Assembly: GCF_003172915.1 (NCBI RefSeq)
Contig: NZ_QGKU01000003.1
Span: forward strand, 62,001-126,000
Length of the DNA: 64,000 bases
Reading direction: 5' to 3'
From: Meridianimarinicoccus roseus
GTDB taxonomy: Bacteria; Pseudomonadota; Alphaproteobacteria; Rhodobacterales; Rhodobacteraceae
Shown here: one piece after another, positions 1,454 to 9,468 of the stretch
Layout of the letters: every line of letters begins with the position of its first letter
How positions within the stretch are numbered: the first letter of the stretch is position 1
Notes under the pieces: model-generated
The model's input: the letters and a program-made list of their open reading frames with translations, nothing else
Databases searched by the model: none
What the model was told of the DNA's origin: nothing
Made by a program: the position numbers and the translations under genes

Positions 1454-1464
1454 TCAGGCGGCGC
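1444..1464 (-). terminator. Hairpin over the mct stop codon
   Basis: A perfect 9-bp inverted repeat (GCGCCGCCT and AGGCGGCGC, 3-nt loop) spans the stop codon of mct at the end of the six-gene operon. It has no following T tract, so it may be a 3' stabiliser or a Rho-assisted end rather than a classical intrinsic terminator. Confidence 0.45.
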
Positions 1465-2695
1465 TGTGCAGTTTCGCGCCGTCCGGTCCGCGCACGATGC
1501 CACGGTCGAAAAGCCGCGCGATCTCGGTGTCGTCCAAGCCGGTCACGTCGCTCAAAATCTCCTCGGTATGGGCACCCAACACCGGTGCCGCGCGCGGCGG
1601 ATCGCGCTCCAGCGCCGAGAAACTGGCGGCGTGTCCGGGCACCGGGAAGCGGCCTAGCTGTTCTTGCGCGAGGTCTGTGAAGATCGGGTTGTCGGGCCCT
1701 AGATCAGGGTCTTGCGTCACCGCCTCGTGGACGGTGCGGAATTGTGACCAGGTCAACTTCGCCTCGTCGAACAAATCGGCAACAACCTTGGACGGACGGG
1801 CGGCGAACCACGGGCGCAGGATTGCGGTGATCTGCGCGCGCAGTTCCCAGCGCGCGCCCTCGTCGGCCAGATCGCGGCCCGTGCGGCGGGCCAGCCGGTC
1901 CATCTCGGCCTCGGTCCCCGTAACCTGTACAAGCCCTGTCCATTGCCGCGCGGTCAGGCCGATCACCATGACCCGCTGCCCGTCGGCACACACAAAGTCC
2001 TGCCCGTAGGCGCCGTAAAGCGCATTCCCGGACTTTCCCCGTACAGCGCCGTTCAGGACCGCATCGCCGATCATACCGAGATGGCCCAGCGTGGCGGCGG
2101 CCACGTCCTTGAGCGTCAGCGTCACCTCCTGCCCCGCGCCGGTGCGCAGGCGGTGCCGTTCGGCGGCCAGCACCGACGATACACACATGTGCCCCGCCAC
2201 CAGATCCCAGGCCGGCAAGGCGTTGGCGACCGGCCCGTCATGGTCTTCGGGGCCGGTGATATCGGGAATGCCGAGCGCGGGATTCACCGTGTAGTCCACT
2301 TGCGGGCGACCCTGCCGGTCGCCCAGCAGCGTCACCATCACAAGGTCTTTGCGGTGGCAACTCAGGGTTTCGTAGTCCATCCAGCCGCGCACGCGCAGGT
2401 TGGTCAGGAAAACGCCGGCATCCTTTCCAGGCGCCGTGATTGTGCGGGTAATCAACTCGCGGCCCTCTGGATGGCTCATGTCCACGGCGATGGACCGCTT
2501 GCCCTTGTTCAAGCCGGCCCAGAACAGACTGCGGCCAGATGGTGCCAGCGGCCAGCGACCGGCATCTAGCCCGCCTTGAAGACGGTCGAAGCGGATCACG
2601 TCGGCGCCCATCTGCGCCAGCGTCATCCCCGCCAGCGGCACTGCCACGAAGGCGGACCCCTCGACCACCCGCATTCCTTGAAGAATTCCGGTCAT
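1454..2695 (-). CDS. mct: CaiB/BaiF-type CoA transferase, probable mesaconyl-CoA C1-C4 CoA transferase (2-methylfumaryl-CoA isomerase)
   Basis: This 413-residue family III CoA transferase starts with a region (RVVEGSAFVAVPLAGMTLAQ) close to what I recall of Chloroflexus Mct, which moves CoA within mesaconate from C1 to C4. The intramolecular reaction needs an active-site Asp, matched by Asp164 in LPAWDLVAG. Other matching blocks are LFWAGLNKGKRSIA and DYTVNPALG. The start at 2695 is chosen because the family begins there; an in-frame extension upstream overlaps meh. It is the last gene of the operon, 2 nt after meh. General CaiB transferases such as itaconate CoA-transferase are the alternative. 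The operon neighbour meh supplies the next enzyme of the Mct route, which strengthens the call. Confidence 0.82.
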   Translation of the reverse strand: MTGILQGMRVVEGSAFVAVPLAGMTLAQMGADVIRFDRLQGGLDAGRWPLAPSGRSLFWAGLNKGKRSIAVDMSHPEGRELITRTITAPGKDAGVFLTNLRVRGWMDYETLSCHRKDLVMVTLLGDRQGRPQVDYTVNPALGIPDITGPEDHDGPVANALPAWDLVAGHMCVSSVLAAERHRLRTGAGQEVTLTLKDVAAATLGHLGMIGDAVLNGAVRGKSGNALYGAYGQDFVCADGQRVMVIGLTARQWTGLVQVTGTEAEMDRLARRTGRDLADEGARWELRAQITAILRPWFAARPSKVVADLFDEAKLTWSQFRTVHEAVTQDPDLGPDNPIFTDLAQEQLGRFPVPGHAASFSALERDPPRAAPVLGAHTEEILSDVTGLDDTEIARLFDRGIVRGPDGAKLHSAA

Positions 2696-2697
2696 TC

Positions 2698-3591
2698 TCA
2701 GTCCTCCCAATCCGCTGTTGCCGTCATGCCCATGTGCCCCGCCGCGGCGACGGTGCACATGTCAAGGCTGCCGCCGGCCCCGTGCGTCGCGCAGAGGCGC
2801 AGGTCGCTGTCGTGAAACATCGGGTGGACGCCGCGGAAGCTGAAGCTGTCCGGACGGCGGCCCTTCCAACGCATGGCCTGCGCGATCAGCAGGTTTGCCT
2901 GCAACGGTCCGTGCACCACGAGACCGGGATAGTGTTCTACATCGCGCGCGTAGGGCAGATCGTAGTGGATGCGGTGCGCGTTGAAGGTGATCGCCGAATA
3001 GCGGAACAGCAGTGCGGTGGAGACGGGTTGATGCCGGTCGATGACAAGGTTTTCCGTCGGCGCTGGTCTTTTCGGGGGCGGCTTGAATGTCGGTGCGAAC
3101 GGAAGGTACACGATCGACTGCGTTTCGCGCACGGCGAGTCCCGCGGCGCCGCGCAGTTCGTGTTCGACCACGACGAAGACCATCGGCCCGGCGGCACCGG
3201 ACTTTTCCTCGACAGCGGTGATGGTGGACGATTTGTCCATCCGCTCTCCGACGCGCAGGTCGGCGTAGAATTCCAGCTGCCCGGACGCCCACATCCGGCG
3301 CGAGCGCGGCACCGGGGGAAGGAAGCCGCCGAGGCGCGGATGCCCGTCTTCCGCGAGGCCGTCCATCGGCACGGCGGGAGGGAATGCATACCAGTGCCAC
3401 AAGGGCGGAAGCGCCTCACCCTCTACCGGGGCCGCGTCGTCCGACTGGCCCAGGGTCGCGTGTATGGTGCCCGCGACAGAGGGCGGCACGCAGCCCTGCA
3501 TGCTTTCCTGCCGTCCGATCCAGTCGGACAGGCGCAGTCCGGTGTCGGCGGGGGGTGCCGACACCGGTGCAGAGGCGCGCGCGACACTCAT
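2698..3591 (-). CDS. meh: MaoC/HTD2-type hydratase, probable mesaconyl-C4-CoA hydratase
   Basis: A 297-residue double hot-dog protein of the FAS1-dehydratase/HTD2 type. The N-terminal half (LSDWIGRQESMQG, PLWHWYAFPP) and C-terminal half (AITFNAHRIHYDLPYA, GLVVHGPLQANLLI) match that family; the R-I-H-Y-D box carries the catalytic His/Asp. In the 3-hydroxypropionate bicycle Meh hydrates mesaconyl-C4-CoA to (S)-citramalyl-CoA, which malyl-CoA lyase then splits to acetyl-CoA and pyruvate. Position between mtkB and mct supports that role. The related itaconyl-CoA hydratase cannot be excluded. The start at 3591 is chosen over a far upstream in-frame start because it falls just after the mtkB stop and the protein begins close to the conserved domain. 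Confidence 0.78.
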   Translation of the reverse strand: MSVARASAPVSAPPADTGLRLSDWIGRQESMQGCVPPSVAGTIHATLGQSDDAAPVEGEALPPLWHWYAFPPAVPMDGLAEDGHPRLGGFLPPVPRSRRMWASGQLEFYADLRVGERMDKSSTITAVEEKSGAAGPMVFVVVEHELRGAAGLAVRETQSIVYLPFAPTFKPPPKRPAPTENLVIDRHQPVSTALLFRYSAITFNAHRIHYDLPYARDVEHYPGLVVHGPLQANLLIAQAMRWKGRRPDSFSFRGVHPMFHDSDLRLCATHGAGGSLDMCTVAAAGHMGMTATADWED

Positions 3592-3598
3592 TTCAGCG

Positions 3599-4498
3599 TC
3601 ACGCCGCGCTGCGCGTGGGCGCCAGCAAACGCGCCACTGTTTCGCCCATCGCCGACGGGTTCGGCGCGACCTCGATGCCGCAGGCGCTGAGCAGGGCAAC
3701 CTTCTCTTGCGCGCTTTCGCCGAAGGCCGAGATGATCGCGCCTGCATGGCCCATCTGGCGGCCCTTCGGCGCGGCAAGGCCGGCAATGTATGCGGCGACC
3801 GGCTTGGTCATATGATCGCGCACATAGGCCGCGGCCTCGGCTTCTTGCGGACCGCCGATCTCGCCGATCATGATCACCGCGTCGGTCTCCGGGTCGGCTT
3901 CGAACAATTCCAGGATGTCGCGGAAGGACGAGCCGTTGATCGGATCGCCTCCGATCCCGATGGAAGAAGACACACCGATGCCGAGCGCCTGCATCTGCGA
4001 GGCGGCTTCATAGCCCAGCGTGCCGGATCGGCCCACGATGCCCACGCGGCCGGGGGTATAGATCGCCGGTGGCATGATCCCCATGAATCCCTTCCCAGGA
4101 CTGATGATCCCGGCGCAGTTCGGACCGATCAGGCGCATCTTTCGATCACGCGGAAAGCGGCGCAGGAAGCGCTTCACGCGCATCATGTCCTGTGCCGGGA
4201 TGCCATCGGTCACGCAGACTGCGGTGCGGATCCCGGCATCGGCAGCTTCCATCATCGCGTCCGCCGCAGCGGGCGGCGGCACAAACAGAAGGCTCGCATC
4301 GGCGCCGGTGGCCTCCACGGCTTCGCGCACGGTATTGAAAACGGGTCGGTTCAGAACGGTGGTTCCGCCCTTGCCCGGCGTCACGCCGGCGACCACGCGT
4401 GTGCCGTGCTCGATCATCTCTTGGGCATGGAACTGCCCGATCCGGCCGGAAAGGCCTTGGACGACGACGCGGGTCTCTTCAGTGATGAGAATGGCCAT
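3599..4498 (-). CDS. mtkB: Malate--CoA ligase alpha subunit (succinyl-CoA synthetase alpha-like)
   Basis: A 299-residue CoA-binding/ligase-CoA protein. It shows the CoA-binding Rossmann start (RVVVQGLSGRIGQFHAQ), the GRSGTLGYEAASQM box and the phospho-histidine box GHAGAI. Sequence and length fit either succinyl-CoA ligase or malate thiokinase; the neighbours mcl and sgaA favour malate + ATP + CoA giving malyl-CoA, as in serine-cycle gene clusters. It lies 12 nt after mtkA, with which it forms the heteromeric enzyme in the cytoplasm. A citramalate-, itaconate- or mesaconate-activating role is possible given meh and mct downstream. Confidence 0.82.
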   Translation of the reverse strand: MAILITEETRVVVQGLSGRIGQFHAQEMIEHGTRVVAGVTPGKGGTTVLNRPVFNTVREAVEATGADASLLFVPPPAAADAMMEAADAGIRTAVCVTDGIPAQDMMRVKRFLRRFPRDRKMRLIGPNCAGIISPGKGFMGIMPPAIYTPGRVGIVGRSGTLGYEAASQMQALGIGVSSSIGIGGDPINGSSFRDILELFEADPETDAVIMIGEIGGPQEAEAAAYVRDHMTKPVAAYIAGLAAPKGRQMGHAGAIISAFGESAQEKVALLSACGIEVAPNPSAMGETVARLLAPTRSAA

Positions 4499-4510: not shown

Positions 4511-5689
4511 TCATTCGGCTGCAATTGTGTGCGGACGGGCGGCGACCGCGGCATGCGCAGCTTCCGAAAGGGTGTCCGCCCCGATGATCGGCAGACCGCT
4601 GTCGCGGATGATCCTGCGCCCCGCTTCCACGTTGGTGCCGGACAGGCGGACCACGACGGGGATCTCGATTCCGACCTCCTTGTAGGCCTGTATCACTCCG
4701 TTCGCGATCCAGTCGCAGCGGTTGATCCCTGCGAAAATGTTCACGAGGATCACGCTGACGTTGGGATCGGACAGCACCGTGCGGAACGCTTGGCAGACAC
4801 GTTCCGGGCTGGCGCCGCCGCCGATGTCGAGGAAATTCGCGGGCGCACCGCCGGCCAGTTGGATCATGTCCATCGAGGCCATGGCAAGCCCGGCGCCGTT
4901 GATGATGCATCCGATGTCGCCATCGAGGCCGACATAGGCCAGTCCGTGGTCGTGGGCGAAGCTCTCGCGCGGGTCTTCCTGGCCCGGATCGCGCAGTGAG
5001 GCGACTTCTTCCCGGCGGAACAACGCATTGGTGTCGAAAGACATCTTGGCATCAAGCGCCACGATGCTGCCGTCGTCGCACACGACCAGCGGATTGATCT
5101 CCACCATCATGGCGTCGAGGTCACGATAGGCGCGGTAGCAGGCCCGCAGCGCAGTGACCATCTGGCCCACCTGCTGGCCCGATAGGCCAAGCCGGAATGC
5201 AAGCTCGCGCGCCTGGTAATCCGCGAGTCCGACAGCCGGGTCGATCACCATGCGGATCAGGCTCTCGGGATCCTCTTCGGCCAGGTCCTCGATTTCCATC
5301 CCGCCATGCCCGGAGGCAACGATCATGATGCGTTCGGACTTCCGGTCCAGCACGAACCCCAGATAGAGTTCCCGCGCAATGTTCGAGGCTTCCTCGATCC
5401 ACAACCGGTCGATGCGTTTGCCTGCGGCGCCGGTCTGCTTCGTGACCAGCGTTGTGCCCAGAAGTCCGGATGCGAACTCTCGCACTTCGGCGTCGGACCG
5501 GCAGAGCTTTACTCCGCCAGCCTCGCCGCGCCCGCCCGAATGGACCTGCGCCTTGACCACGCAGACCTCGCCGCCGAGGGTGCGAAAGAGATGAGCGGCC
5601 TGTTCGGGTGTGAAAGCCACCCCGCCGCGCGGCACCGGCACGCCGAAGCGGGCGAGAATGGCCTTTGCCTGGTGTTCGTGAATATCCAT
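4511..5689 (-). CDS. mtkA: Malate--CoA ligase beta subunit (ATP-grasp, SucC-like)
   Basis: A 392-residue ATP-grasp subunit starting [20 protein letters not shown], the usual SucC/MtkA N-terminus. [17 protein letters not shown] is the nucleotide-binding loop, VEINPLVV the metal/nucleotide box, and the C-terminal part carries [15 protein letters not shown] and [12 protein letters not shown], the region facing the alpha subunit. With MtkB it would activate malate to malyl-CoA for cleavage by the next gene upstream, mcl. The start is well set by the protein family. SucC proper is the alternative; a housekeeping sucCD would be expected next to other TCA genes, not here. Confidence 0.83.
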
Positions 5690-5712: not shown

Positions 5713-6666
5713 CTATTCGGCGGCGACCGCCTTGGCGGCGATCGCGTTGGCGGTGTCGATGACGTTTCGCGCCATCTTTTCGCTGGCCGCGTCGATCATC
5801 TTTCCGTCAAGGCTGGCCGCCCCCTTGCCGGCGGCTTCGGCCGCGCGCAGTTCGGCGATGATGCGCTGCGCGCGCGATACCTCGGCATGGGGCGGGCTGA
5901 ACACTTCGTTGGCCATGTCGATCTGGCTGGGATGGATCGCCCACTTGCCTTCGCAGCCCAGTGCCGCTGCGCGGCGCGCGCCGGCCATGTAGCCATCAGG
6001 GTCGCTGAAATCGCCGAATGGTCCGTCGATGGCGCGCAGCCCGTAGGCGCGGCAGGCGATGACCATGCGGGTGATGGATGCGTGCCACTGGTCGCCCGGA
6101 TAGTCGGGGTTCAGCCCGCCGATGTTCACGGTCCGGGCGCGCATGCTGGCCGCGTAGTCGGCCACACCGAAATGCAGCGCCTCCAGCCGTCCGCCGAACT
6201 GGGCGATTGCCTCCACGTTGGCCATGCCAAGCGCTGTTTCGATCAGCGCTTCAAGCCCGACGCGGGTTTCGAGCCCGGCGCCCTGTTCGATCTGGTTCAC
6301 CATCGCCTCGACCATGTAAAGGTCGGACGGCACGCCGACCTTGGGAACGAGCAGCGTGTGCACCCGGTCGCCGGCCTGCTCCATCACATCGACGACGTCA
6401 CGATACATGTAATGGGTGTCAAGCCCGTTGATCCGCACCGATACCGTCTTGCCCTTGGCTGCCCAGTCGATGTCGTTCAGTGCCTGGATCGCGTTCTTGC
6501 GCGCCTGCACCTTCTCAGGAGGTGCGACCGCGTCTTCCAGATCAAGGAACACGAAATCGGCGGCGCTGTCGGCGGCCTTCTCGATCATCGTAGGATTGGA
6601 GGCCGGGACAGCCAGTTCGGACCGGTGAAGGCGCTGTTTGCGCAAGGGATGCAGCGTATGGGACAT
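5713..6666 (-). CDS. mcl: L-malyl-CoA / beta-methylmalyl-CoA lyase
   Basis: A 317-residue HpcH/HpaI aldolase of the length known for Rhodobacter Mcl1 (about 318). Conserved blocks are the start ([20 protein letters not shown]), [12 protein letters not shown] with the Mg-binding acidic residues, [17 protein letters not shown], and [10 protein letters not shown] near the CoA site. The enzyme reversibly cleaves malyl-CoA to acetyl-CoA + glyoxylate and beta-methylmalyl-CoA to propionyl-CoA + glyoxylate; in Chloroflexus the homologue also splits citramalyl-CoA. The start at 6666 is preferred because the conserved domain begins there; an upstream in-frame extension is composed of low-quality sequence. 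It lies 58 nt downstream of sgaA. Confidence 0.9.
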
Positions 6667-6724
6667 GTGTGGGATTCCGGATGCTTCGGGGGCGGATGAA
6701 GGGCGGGCCTCAGCGGCCCGCCAG

Positions 6725-7927
6725 TTATTCTGCGGCGACCTGCAGCATCGGGCGCTTGGCGGCCTGCGCCGCGTACCACGCCTGCGCGGCGCCGACGCCC
6801 GCGCCCAGTTGCAGCTTAACACCCGCGCGGTAGAGCGCCATTTCGGCGACCGACAGCGCGGTCAGGCACATCGCCTCGTTCAGATCCCCGAGATGGCCGA
6901 TGCGGAACACCTTGCCTGCGAGCGGACCAAGTCCGCTGCCGAATGAGGTGTTGAAATCTTCATAGGCGATGCGCAGCACGTCGCGTGCATCCACTTCCGC
7001 TGGCACGCGGATCGCCGACACAGTGTCGGAGTACAGCGTGTGATGTTCCGCCACGAGCGACAGGCCCCAGGCTGATATGCCTCGGCGCACGCCCTCGGCC
7101 AGCCGGTGATGCCGGGCAATGACCTTGTCCAGCCCTTCCTGTTCGATCCGGGCCAGCGAGCGGCGCAGCCCGTGAAACAGCTGGGTTGGCGGCGTGTATG
7201 GGAAGTAGCCGTCCGCGTTCATCTTCAGCATGTCGGCGAATTCGAAATAGGCCCGGCGCATTGTCGCGTGGCGGGACGCCTCCAGCGCCTTTTCGCTGAT
7301 CCCGAGAATGCCGAGGCCGGCCGGAAGCATAAGACCCTTCTGGCTTCCGGTGACGACCAGATCGACCTCCCACTCGTCCATCCGGAAGTCGAGAGACGCG
7401 ACCGAGGACACGCCATCGACGAACAGCAGGGCGTCGTGGAAGTTCTCGTCCAGCGCGCGGCGCACCGCGGCGACGTTTGATGCGACCCCCGTTGCGGTCT
7501 CGTTCTGGGTGACGAAGACGGCCTTGATCTTGTCATCGCGATCGGCGGCAAGGCGGCGGGCGAATTCCTTCACGGGTGTACCCGCGCCCCACGGCAGGTC
7601 CACCACTTCCACGTCGAGACCGAGCCTCTGGGCCATCTCGACCCACAGGCCCGAGAACTGGCCGTGGCGCGCCATCAGCACCTTGTCGCCGGGATTGAGC
7701 GTGTTCGTGATCGCGGCTTCCCACGCGCCGGTGCCGGAGCCGGGGAAGAACATGACGGTGCCTGTCGTAGTGCGCAGGACCGATTTCATGCCCGCGAACA
7801 GGCCGAGTGTCAGCTCGCCGAAATCGGCGGCGCGCATGTCCTGCATGGGCACGTTCATGGCCTGACGGACCGTTTCGGGTACGTTGGTGGGGCCTGGGAT
7901 GAAAAGATGTGTTTGACCGGTGCGCAT
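6725..7927 (-). CDS. sgaA: Serine--glyoxylate aminotransferase
   Basis: A 400-residue class V aminotransferase, first gene of the operon. FIPGPTNVPETVRQAM is the family N-terminus, and the PLP lysine lies in TGSQKGLMLPAG. It transfers the amino group of serine to glyoxylate, giving hydroxypyruvate and glycine; glyoxylate would come from malyl-CoA lyase. The start at 7927 has a strong AGGAGG site six bases upstream, which rules out the long in-frame extension. The nested palindrome at 8010-8047 lies in the shared upstream region with the divergent regulator, so both are probably controlled by it. A related alanine- or aspartate-glyoxylate transaminase is less likely. Confidence 0.9.
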   Translation of the reverse strand: MRTGQTHLFIPGPTNVPETVRQAMNVPMQDMRAADFGELTLGLFAGMKSVLRTTTGTVMFFPGSGTGAWEAAITNTLNPGDKVLMARHGQFSGLWVEMAQRLGLDVEVVDLPWGAGTPVKEFARRLAADRDDKIKAVFVTQNETATGVASNVAAVRRALDENFHDALLFVDGVSSVASLDFRMDEWEVDLVVTGSQKGLMLPAGLGILGISEKALEASRHATMRRAYFEFADMLKMNADGYFPYTPPTQLFHGLRRSLARIEQEGLDKVIARHHRLAEGVRRGISAWGLSLVAEHHTLYSDTVSAIRVPAEVDARDVLRIAYEDFNTSFGSGLGPLAGKVFRIGHLGDLNEAMCLTALSVAEMALYRAGVKLQLGAGVGAAQAWYAAQAAKRPMLQVAAE

Positions 7928-8009
7928 GGGATGTCCTCCTGAACTGGACCCTGCGTAAGCCGGTGTGACCCGATGCTGCAAAGGCAAACGGGTCGCGCTG
8001 TGTGCGCAC

Positions 8010-8047
8010 AAGTTCACAAAAATCACAATTTGTGATGTTGTGAACTT
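8010..8047. promoter_or_regulatory. Nested palindromic operator between sgaA operon and the ScfR-type regulator
   Basis: An outer 10-bp perfect inverted repeat (AAGTTCACAA at 8010-8019, TTGTGAACTT at 8038-8047) encloses an inner one (ATCACAA 8022-8028, TTGTGAT 8030-8036). The hexamer TCACAA therefore occurs four times, twice per strand, around one centre. It lies 18 bp before the regulator start and 83 bp before sgaA. It is the obvious binding site for the adjacent regulator and could serve both autoregulation and operon control; binding itself is inferred. Confidence 0.7.
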
Positions 8048-8064
8048 CGTGCTACACGAAACCC

Positions 8065-9468
8065 ATGAAGACCTTCATCGGACCGCGCCTGCGACGTCTT
8101 CGCCGCAATGCCCAGCAGACCCAGGCGGAAATGGCCAAGGTTCTCGGGATCAGCAATTCCTATGTCAACATGCTGGAAAAGAACGAACGCAGCGTATCGG
8201 TCCCGGTGCTGCTGCGCCTGTTCGAAGCCTATGGCGTCGACTGGCGCGACATCGCGGACGAAGACGACGCCGCGACGCTGGGCAGCTTGCGCAGCGCCTT
8301 CCAGGACCCGCTGTTCGACGACCACAAGCCAGACATGCCGCAGCTTCGCGCGCTGCTGTCCCATGCGCCGGATGTCGCGCACAGCTTCCTGCAACTGCAT
8401 CACGCCTATCGCGCGGCGACTGACCAGCTGCTGCTGTTGTCCAATGCAAGCGAATCCGACCTGAACATTCTGCGCGCCTCGCCAGAAGCGGTCGTGCACG
8501 ACTTTTTCCGGGACAACCGAAACCATTTCCCAGAACTGGAGGCCGCCGCCGCGTCGTTCTGGGGCGGCGTGCCGGTCGAGCCGGACGAAACCTACGCCAT
8601 GCTCAAGCAGCGCCTGCGCGAGCGGCAGAGGCTGCGCACCCGCGTGGTGCCTGTCTCCGAGATGCCGGACGCGCTGCGCGAGTACGACGAGGACCGTCGC
8701 GAGGTGCGCCTGTCCGAAGGGCTGGACCATCCCAACCGCGTGTTCCAGTTGGCCCATGTGACCGGCCTGATCGAACAGCGTGACGTGATCGACGGCATCC
8801 TGTCACGGCTGAACATCGACGAACCGGCCGGTTTGAACCGCTGCCGCGTCGAACTGGCAAACTATTTCGCCGCGTCGGTGCTGATGCCCTACGACGCCTT
8901 CCTGACCGAAGCGTTGGCCTGCAAGTACGATTTCGCCCACCTGTCGCTGCGCTTCGGCGTGAGCTTCGAGCAGGCCTGCCACCGCGCCACGACGCTGCAG
9001 CGCGAGGGTGCGGAAGGCGTGCCGTTCTTCTTCCTGCGCATCGACAAGGCGGGCAATGTCACCAAGCGGTTCAACTCTACCGGCTTCCACCTTGCGGAAT
9101 ACGGCGGGGCCTGTGCGCGGCTGGACGTGCATACCAGTTTCCGCAGCCCCGGCAGCATCGTGCCGCAATTCGTCGAAATGCCGGACGGGGCGCGGTTCTT
9201 CGTCTTCGCGCGCACAGTAAACCGGCCGCGCTTCACAAGGCATACCCAGGACAAGCGGCTCGCCATCGCGATGGGCTGCAGCATCGAGCATCTCGAGGCG
9301 ATCGGCTACGCCGAGGATTTCCGCAAGACCGACGCGAGGATCACCGAGGTCGGCATCAACTGCCGGATCTGCCCGCGCGCCAATTGCGACCAGCGCGCCC
9401 ACAACGCCATGATCCTGAACGAACCGGTGGATATCAGGCGGCGCGGCACCACGCGCTACGCGACCTGA
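8065..9468 (+). CDS. XRE-family short-chain acyl-CoA responsive regulator (ScfR/PccR/RamB type)
   Basis: A 467-residue protein. Residues 3-60 are an XRE helix-turn-helix (RLRRLRRNAQQTQAEMAKVLG, split here: RLRRLRRN then QTQAEMAKVLGIS). A central ImmA/IrrE-like segment (RVFQLAHVTG) lacks the metallopeptidase HExxH, as in PrpR/RamB-type sensors. The C-terminal DUF2083 part has NCRICPRANCDQRA, the Cys cluster of this family that in mycobacterial PrpR relates to an Fe-S centre. Known relatives sense propionyl-CoA, acetyl-CoA or other short acyl-CoAs. Divergent position and the palindrome at 8010-8047 indicate control of the sgaA-mct operon, whose lyase makes or uses acetyl- and propionyl-CoA. Confidence 0.85.
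   Translation: MKTFIGPRLRRLRRNAQQTQAEMAKVLGISNSYVNMLEKNERSVSVPVLLRLFEAYGVDWRDIADEDDAATLGSLRSAFQDPLFDDHKPDMPQLRALLSHAPDVAHSFLQLHHAYRAATDQLLLLSNASESDLNILRASPEAVVHDFFRDNRNHFPELEAAAASFWGGVPVEPDETYAMLKQRLRERQRLRTRVVPVSEMPDALREYDEDRREVRLSEGLDHPNRVFQLAHVTGLIEQRDVIDGILSRLNIDEPAGLNRCRVELANYFAASVLMPYDAFLTEALACKYDFAHLSLRFGVSFEQACHRATTLQREGAEGVPFFFLRIDKAGNVTKRFNSTGFHLAEYGGACARLDVHTSFRSPGSIVPQFVEMPDGARFFVFARTVNRPRFTRHTQDKRLAIAMGCSIEHLEAIGYAEDFRKTDARITEVGINCRICPRANCDQRAHNAMILNEPVDIRRRGTTRYAT

What the first reader, a model, noticed from the sequence alone, without database searches (positions are those of the whole stretch)
8010..8047. Four-copy nested palindrome as operator of the ScfR-type regulator
The hexamer TCACAA occurs four times in two nested inverted repeats around almost one centre in the 137-bp divergent region. 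Such symmetry suggests a tetramer or two dimers stacked on the site, controlling both directions. I do not recall this exact motif as the published one for PrpR/RamB/PccR relatives, whose sites look like TTTGCAAA.
Basis: partly seen in the sequence, partly recalled or inferred. Interest (0 to 1): 0.6.

Follow-up and report, generated by a model that had tools for sequence, protein, structure and literature searches.

The report
Operator of a serine-cycle-operon ScfR regulator

Summary
The repeat is there as described: TCACAA at 8014 and 8023, TTGTGA at 8030 and 8038, perfect 10-base outer arms, in a 137-base divergent region. It exceeds chance and is unique in the genome. In the window plus 80 orthologous loci, the outer-left (B, 8013-8018), inner-right (C, 8030-8035) and outer-right (D, 8038-8044) boxes are conserved. 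The inner-left copy (8023-8028) is not (full match in 2 of 81), and the perfect palindrome is private to the window. The B-C-D pattern (at most 1 mismatch) occurs in 12 of 121 genomes, in 11 of them directly upstream of this regulator. The regulator is an ScfR protein (PrpR/RamB relatives). The divergent operon looks like a serine-cycle/malyl-CoA module: glyoxylate aminotransferase, malyl-CoA lyase, malate-CoA ligase. Best reading: a tandem-box ScfR operator resembling Paracoccus class 2 RamB boxes rather than TTTGCAAA, probably autorepressing the regulator through C/D and controlling the operon in response to a CoA ester. Binding, sign and ligand are inferred, not shown. Verdict: solid operator, geometry partly misread, modest novelty.

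The parts
8013..8018 (+). Box B, outer-left half-site TTCACA (consensus TTYACA)
   Evidence: TTYACA 6/6 in 79 of 81 rows, 5/6 in 2; columns 1.2-2.5 bits
8030..8035 (+). Box C, inner-right half-site TTGTGA (consensus TTGTRA); overlaps the putative -35 of the regulator promoter
   Evidence: 6/6 in 37 and 5/6 in 39 of 81 rows; first T poorly kept, the remaining five columns 0.8-1.9 bits
8038..8044 (+). Box D, outer-right half-site TTGTGAA (consensus TTGTRAA); direct repeat of C, 8 bases on
   Evidence: TTGTRA 6/6 in 58 and 5/6 in 17 of 81 rows
7989..8009 (+). Block A, conserved CGGGTYNYGCTGTRAAYGCGA; partly degenerate in the window (TGTGTGCGCAC). Role open: further half-site, or core/start region of the operon promoter
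   Evidence: Most columns above 1 bit; TGTRAA 6/6 in 69 of 81 rows, 4/6 in the window, the only row that low
8023..8028 (+).
   Evidence: TYACAA 6/6 in 2 of 81 rows (window, L077), 0.09 expected from shuffled spacers; columns 0.16-0.59 bit
8010..8047 (.).
   Evidence: perfect 10/10 in 1 of 81 rows, 6 to 9 of 10 in 78
8053..8058 (+). Putative -10 (TACACG) of the regulator promoter, 17 nt after C and 6 nt before the ATG
   Evidence: Hexamer starting TA at spacer 17 in 9 of 11 and at spacer 16 in 2 of 11 rows of the window's clade; the strict consensus scan found no promoter
8065..9468 (+). ScfR-family regulator, 467 aa (HTH, IrrE-N-like and ScfRs domains)
   Evidence: PF09856 189.5 bits, PF06114 56 bits, PF01381 42.4 bits, each above its cut-off; MtPrpR structures E about 1e-61
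6725..7927 (-). Divergent first gene, class V aminotransferase acting probably on glyoxylate
   Evidence: Best solved relative serine--glyoxylate aminotransferase 6pk1, 381 bits; NCBIfam BhcA 562 bits, below its cut-off of 650
5713..6669 (-). Malyl-CoA/beta-methylmalyl-CoA lyase-like protein
   Evidence: 5ugr 399 bits, 4l9y 301 bits; no NCBIfam model over its cut-off
4511..5689 (-). Malate--CoA ligase beta subunit (MtkA/B partner)
   Evidence: PRK14046 679.5 bits, cut-off 604
3599..4498 (-). CoA ligase alpha subunit, partner of the above
   Evidence: Succinate--CoA ligase alpha model 423.5 bits, cut-off 336; malate specificity inferred from the partner
2698..3786 (-). FAS1-like dehydratase, possible mesaconyl-C4-CoA hydratase (accessory gene)
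   Evidence: PF13452 40.2 bits, cut-off 22; no NCBIfam match; present in 16 of 66 orthologous loci
1454..2758 (-). CoA-transferase family III, 2-methylfumaryl-CoA isomerase-like (accessory gene)
   Evidence: TIGR04253 487.5 bits, below its cut-off of 725; present in 16 of 60 orthologous loci

Best explanation
The element is the operator of the ScfR-family regulator encoded at 8065-9468. Its core is a tandem pair of half-sites C-D (TTGTRA-N2-TTGTRAA, 8-base spacing). An inverted half-site B (TTYACA) starts 17 bases upstream of C, and a conserved block A lies further upstream. Inferred mechanism: the regulator, an oligomer like PrpR and Paracoccus RamB, sits on B-C-D. C overlaps the -35 of the regulator's own promoter and D lies in that promoter's spacer, so binding represses its own, apparently leaderless, gene. 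From the same site it controls the divergent aminotransferase / malyl-CoA lyase / malate-CoA ligase operon, most likely as a ligand-dependent activator; the signal would be a CoA ester of malyl-, methylmalyl- or mesaconyl-CoA metabolism. Shown here: presence, conservation, uniqueness and association with this regulator. Inferred: binding, oligomer geometry, promoters, sign of regulation, ligand.
For: Conservation of B, C, D and block A against an unconserved spacer and inner-left copy in 81 rows, also in five representatives under 72% identical (B 0.90, C 0.88, D 0.80, block A 0.75 mean identity, spacer 0.38, downstream 0.28). Pattern found in 12 of 121 genomes, in 11 directly upstream of the regulator, in all 10 genomes with an ortholog of at least 62% identity; backward control 0. 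The operon partner is stable: aminotransferase in 76 of 79 loci with enough flank, lyase 69 of 77, mtkB 67 of 70, mtkA 63 of 66. All three half-sites carry the C/G variant in exactly the 11 rows whose recognition helix has Met at residue 36, and in none of the other 70. ScfR domains and MtPrpR match with all four aligned cysteines. The direct-repeat unit recalls Paracoccus RamB boxes (oligos in PMC10370305) and the 9-base unit spacing of MtPrpR (PMC6765138). Regulator promoter: TA hexamer 16-17 nt after C in 11 of 11 rows of the window's clade, 5-7 nt before the ATG. Host has Ccr, no isocitrate lyase.
Against: No binding or expression data. The Met36 rows are a single clade, so the joint change is one event. 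Registers were chosen by a score that contains the boxes. L076 and L080 have a one-base shorter B-C spacing. G044 has a pattern match that is not beside its listed ScfR match. G099 (59%) and four relatives at 51-54% lack the pattern. No second site in the own genome, so no independent regulon member. The strict promoter scan found nothing. Lack of a Shine-Dalgarno core is common here (only 12 of 81 rows have one), so it argues weakly for a leaderless mRNA. In Rhodobacter-type rows another pairing, TTTACA-17-TATTGT, fits a promoter better. Activation rather than repression of the operon is by analogy only.
Confidence: 0.8

Rival explanations
1. One reading: four equal TCACAA half-sites in a nested palindrome, bound by a symmetric tetramer or two stacked dimers.
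For: The symmetry is exact in the window and beyond chance. MtPrpR is a tetramer in the crystal (PMC6765138). L077 also has an inner-left TTACAA in register. The inner-left register shows somewhat more partial matches than shuffled spacers (3 of 6 in 37 rows against 19 expected).
Against: The inner-left copy is complete in 2 of 81 rows and its columns carry 0.16-0.59 bit; the outer arms are perfect in 1 of 81. Block A, outside the palindrome, is as conserved as B.
Confidence: 0.1
2. Part of the conservation is promoter sequence and not operator: B and C/D contain -35 and -10 elements of the regulator gene, and block A is the -10/start region of the operon, with the regulator needing only C-D.
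For: TTGTGA-17-TAnnnn in the window's clade, TTTACA-17-TATTGT in Rhodobacter-type rows; in two relatives (L042, L046) the block A position reads TATAAC on the operon strand; block A's R position does not follow B as C and D do (G in 12 of 13 rows with TTC, but also in 40 of 67 with TTT).
Against: B keeps TTYACA in 79 of 81 rows although the promoter pairing differs between clades; block A is kept over 21 bases, more than a core promoter usually is (established knowledge, recalled).
Confidence: 0.35
3. The site belongs to another regulator, such as a CRP/FNR-type protein.
For: TGTGA/TCACA words resemble CRP half-sites (recalled).
Against: C and D with B run TCACA...TGTGA, the reverse of a CRP site (recalled consensus TGTGA-N6-TCACA); block A with B has the right order but about 10 bases between in relatives; a single site in the genome, and in 11 of 12 genomes it is beside this regulator.
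Confidence: 0.04

Closest known systems
Class 2 RamB of Paracoccus denitrificans and its glyoxylate-cycle operator (PMC10370305; sections 5, 7 and 11 read, other passages seen)
   Same: ScfR regulator of Rhodobacterales divergent from its operon; boxes made of two TGTnA-like units 9 bases apart, readable from the printed oligos; tetramer-to-dimer change with CoA esters, strongest with beta-methylmalyl-CoA.
   Different: Paracoccus has two direct boxes with an 18-base spacer; here there is one C-D box with 8-base unit spacing, an inverted B and a block A at other distances. Target is aminotransferase / malyl-CoA lyase / malate-CoA ligase, not malate synthase / isocitrate lyase, and the host lacks isocitrate lyase. 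The proteins were not compared directly.
MtPrpR of Mycobacterium tuberculosis and its TTTGCAAA-N-TTTGCgAA site (PMC6765138; passages read)
   Same: Same domain set beyond the HTH, E about 1e-61, cluster cysteines aligned; tandem units 9 bases apart.
   Different: TTTGCAAA is not in the window's intergenic region; half-site word TTYACA/TTGTRA; different operon.
PccR-like ScfR paralogs of the same bacterial family (PccR itself: recalled, and named in PMC12632250 passages)
   Same: Same protein family, same genomes.
   Different: 35-40% identical, recognition helix SLPYLNQME against SNSYVNMLE; TTTGCAAA within 250 nt upstream in 6 of 17 rows (15 distinct places), against 1 of 81 orthologs of our regulator. 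Which of these paralogs are PccR was not tested.

Membership tests
ScfR family (the regulator protein) | Cro/C1-type HTH, IrrE-N-like domain and C-terminal ScfRs domain | tested here: met
   PF01381, PF06114 and PF09856 each above the gathering score
ScfR family (the regulator protein) | Cysteines of the [4Fe4S] cluster as in MtPrpR (C-X2-C-X4-C plus one cysteine in the GAF-like part) | tested here: met
   All four cysteines aligned with MtPrpR; presence of a cluster not testable
RamB, acetate regulator (NF038139) | Score over the curated cut-off | tested here: not met
   353.7 bits against 700
Class 2 RamB with Paracoccus-type operator | Gene beside a glyoxylate-cycle operon | tested here: not met
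   Operon is aminotransferase / lyase / ligase; no isocitrate lyase in the genome
Class 2 RamB with Paracoccus-type operator | Two like-oriented boxes with an 18-base spacer | tested here: not met
   One C-D direct repeat plus inverted B and block A at other distances (against the oligos)
Class 2 RamB with Paracoccus-type operator | Clusters with Paracoccus RamB in sequence | not tested
   The protein was not at hand; the oligo search meant to find the locus matched 0 of 394 genomes
TTTGCAAA sites (PrpR, class 1 RamB, PccR) | TTTGCAAA units in the operator | tested here: not met
   Absent from 7928-8064; 1 of 81 orthologs has one within 250 nt
ScfR operator | Bound by its ScfR protein and modulated by a CoA ester | not testable with these tools
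   Needs protein and DNA

The most novel reading that the evidence does not exclude
A separate ScfR class runs serine-cycle/malyl-CoA metabolism in Rhodobacterales through a mixed-orientation operator. A tetramer clamps B and C-D (and perhaps A) and shuts both promoters; a malyl-type CoA ester turns it into a dimer that stays on C-D and activates the operon, while the regulator's leaderless mRNA is autorepressed. Half-site word and recognition-helix residue 36 shifted together in one clade.
Probability: 0.25. Interest if true: 0.55.

Novelty: new variant of a known kind. Interest (0 to 1): 0.4.

Why it matters
It gives a testable operator for an ScfR class with no described site in the papers I could read, links it to malyl-CoA/glyoxylate metabolism in Rhodobacterales, and offers a natural pair (TTCACA with Met36, TTTACA with Leu36) for testing how these regulators read DNA. 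The general principle, an ScfR regulator on tandem boxes beside a CoA-ester operon, is already known.

Tried and rejected
CRP-type site: wrong orientation or spacing. TTTGCAAA: absent from the window's intergenic region. Perfect nested palindrome as the functional unit: not conserved. Direct look at the Paracoccus locus: the 80-base oligo printed in PMC10370305 matched 0 of 394 family genomes; with no genome in which it is known to match, this shows nothing. Own-genome scan for further sites with up to 3 mismatches: besides the site, one 3-mismatch hit on C19 and one shifted overlap of the site itself, against 3 hits of the backward control. The 3-mismatch hits were not studied. Structure prediction was not run, as MtPrpR gives the fold by sequence beyond the HTH.

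One search used 80 distinct segments of 81. L076 and L080 have a one-base shorter spacer; they were kept in register B, shifted (in one search L076 shifted; L080 was not printed there), and left out. The tree left out L031-L039. In one search, L019/L053 and L020/L054 are the same places.

Errors made and mended: the aminotransferase query was translated one base out of frame, so its identities there are wrong; one search replaces them. One search failed on a script index; one search is its repeat. In one search minus-strand loci were printed unturned; one search replaces it.

Full report
Observation. In 10,000 dinucleotide shuffles of the 137-base region, 10-base arms arose 37 times, four copies of this hexamer never, and any hexamer with two direct and two inverted copies 27 times. 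The site is unique in the genome.

Neighbours. The gene at 8065-9468 has the ScfR domain set and matches the MtPrpR structures at E about 1e-61 over residues 67-446, with four cysteines aligned. The divergent operon starts at 7927. It encodes an aminotransferase nearest among solved structures to serine--glyoxylate aminotransferase (the BhcA model scores 562 bits, below its cut-off of 650), a malyl-CoA/beta-methylmalyl-CoA lyase-like protein, a malate--CoA ligase beta subunit over its cut-off and a CoA ligase alpha subunit. Two accessory genes follow, a FAS1-like dehydratase and a 2-methylfumaryl-CoA isomerase-like CoA-transferase (below its cut-off); I recall these as the mesaconyl-CoA branch of the 3-hydroxypropionate bi-cycle. 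Across 80 orthologous loci the aminotransferase is present in 76 of 79 with enough flank, the lyase in 69 of 77, mtkB in 67 of 70, mtkA in 63 of 66, and the two accessory genes in 16 of 66 and 16 of 60. The host has a crotonyl-CoA carboxylase/reductase over the cut-off, no isocitrate lyase match (8 of 14 control genomes ring) and a second malyl-CoA lyase-like gene at 49% identity.

Footprint. I took the regions upstream of the regulator in 80 named loci (the best 80 of 166) plus the window, in the register with the best box score. Box matches: B TTYACA 6/6 in 79 of 81; C TTGTRA 6/6 in 37 and 5/6 in 39; D TTGTRA 6/6 in 58 and 5/6 in 17; TGTRAA of block A 6/6 in 69. The inner-left register matches TYACAA fully in 2 of 81 (window and L077), against 0.09 expected from shuffled spacers; its partial matches (3 of 6 in 37 rows, 19 expected) are somewhat above expectation, so a weak base preference there cannot be excluded. 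Column information is 0.16-0.59 bit at 8023-8028, against mostly above 1 bit in B, C, D and block A. Five representatives under 72% identical give the same picture. The outer palindrome is perfect in the window alone; 78 rows have 6 to 9 of 10.

Specificity. The pattern TTYACA-N12-TGTRA-N2-TTGTRAA with up to 1 mismatch was sought in 121 genomes. 12 genomes had it; in 11 the hit lies directly upstream of the regulator relative found. In G044 it does not lie beside the ScfR match that one search lists for that genome. The backward control gave 0. All 10 genomes with an ortholog of at least 62% identity have it. Of the more distant relatives, G060 (54%) has it; G099 (59%), G014, the second G041 copy, G069 and G007 (51-54%) do not. 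All six relatives at 47-54% show a C-D-like direct repeat and five of them lack a TTYACA-like B (the register was chosen by a score that includes these boxes). Near the G000 and G041 copies I recognised, by eye from the translations, tricarboxylate-type transporter proteins and no malyl-CoA operon. This suggests that the direct repeat is the core and B an addition of this clade.

Joint change. In the 11 rows with Met at residue 36 of the regulator, in the recognition helix, B, C and D all carry the C/G variant. None of the other 70 rows has all three; 69 of these were counted as Leu, the one with TTGACA was not in that count. The 11 rows are one clade, so this is one event: it fits one protein reading all three boxes but does not prove it. 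Block A does not follow B in the same way: G in 12 of 13 rows when B is TTC, but also in 40 of 67 when B is TTT.

Promoters. In the window's clade of 11 rows a TA hexamer lies 17 nt (9 rows) or 16 nt (2 rows) downstream of C and 5-7 nt before the regulator ATG. In the wider clade of 24 rows it is at 17 nt in 15. No row of the 11 has a Shine-Dalgarno core, but only 12 of all 81 have one. This predicts a leaderless mRNA and autorepression through C and D. Against it, the strict consensus scan found no promoter, and in Rhodobacter-type rows TTTACA-17-TATTGT fits better. The operon promoter is not settled; block A may be its -10/start region, since L042 and L046 read TATAAC there on the operon strand.

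Comparison. In Paracoccus class 2 RamB the two boxes can be read from the printed oligos (PMC10370305). Its text gives the 18-base spacer, loss of binding with both boxes mutated, loss of reporter expression with either mutated, and the tetramer-to-dimer change, strongest with beta-methylmalyl-CoA. Our C-D pair resembles one such box, but the whole operator does not have the Paracoccus layout and the operon differs, so I say 'works like', not 'is'. TTTGCAAA is found within 250 nt upstream of 6 of 17 paralog rows (15 distinct places), whose recognition helix differs, and of 1 of 81 orthologs. Seven searches (listings seen) brought no account of this class or site, but the founding ScfR paper is not held, so novelty is provisional.

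Verdict. A real and conserved operator.

Noticed in passing
window 1454-3786: A FAS1-like dehydratase and a 2-methylfumaryl-CoA isomerase-like CoA-transferase extend the operon in this genome and in a minority of relatives; with the lyase they could take mesaconyl-CoA to pyruvate and acetyl-CoA (pathway recalled). In L074 this pair appears to lie next to the regulator in place of the usual genes.
   Followed up: partly
L094 (record titled Oceanobacillus sp. HTM 045): A record named as a Bacillota genome carries this alphaproteobacterial locus; probably a mislabelled or contaminated assembly.
   Followed up: no
window 7999-8010: Block A is partly degenerate in the window, which instead holds the palindrome TGTGCGCACA at 8001-8010; its TGTRAA register matches 4 of 6, lowest of 81 rows.
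   Followed up: no
G000:C8:57741-59135 (L046) and G041:C1:1261797-1263191 (L042): Related ScfR regulators (47% and 54% identical) with a TGTAA-type direct repeat close to their start, near what look by eye like tricarboxylate-type transporter genes.
   Followed up: partly
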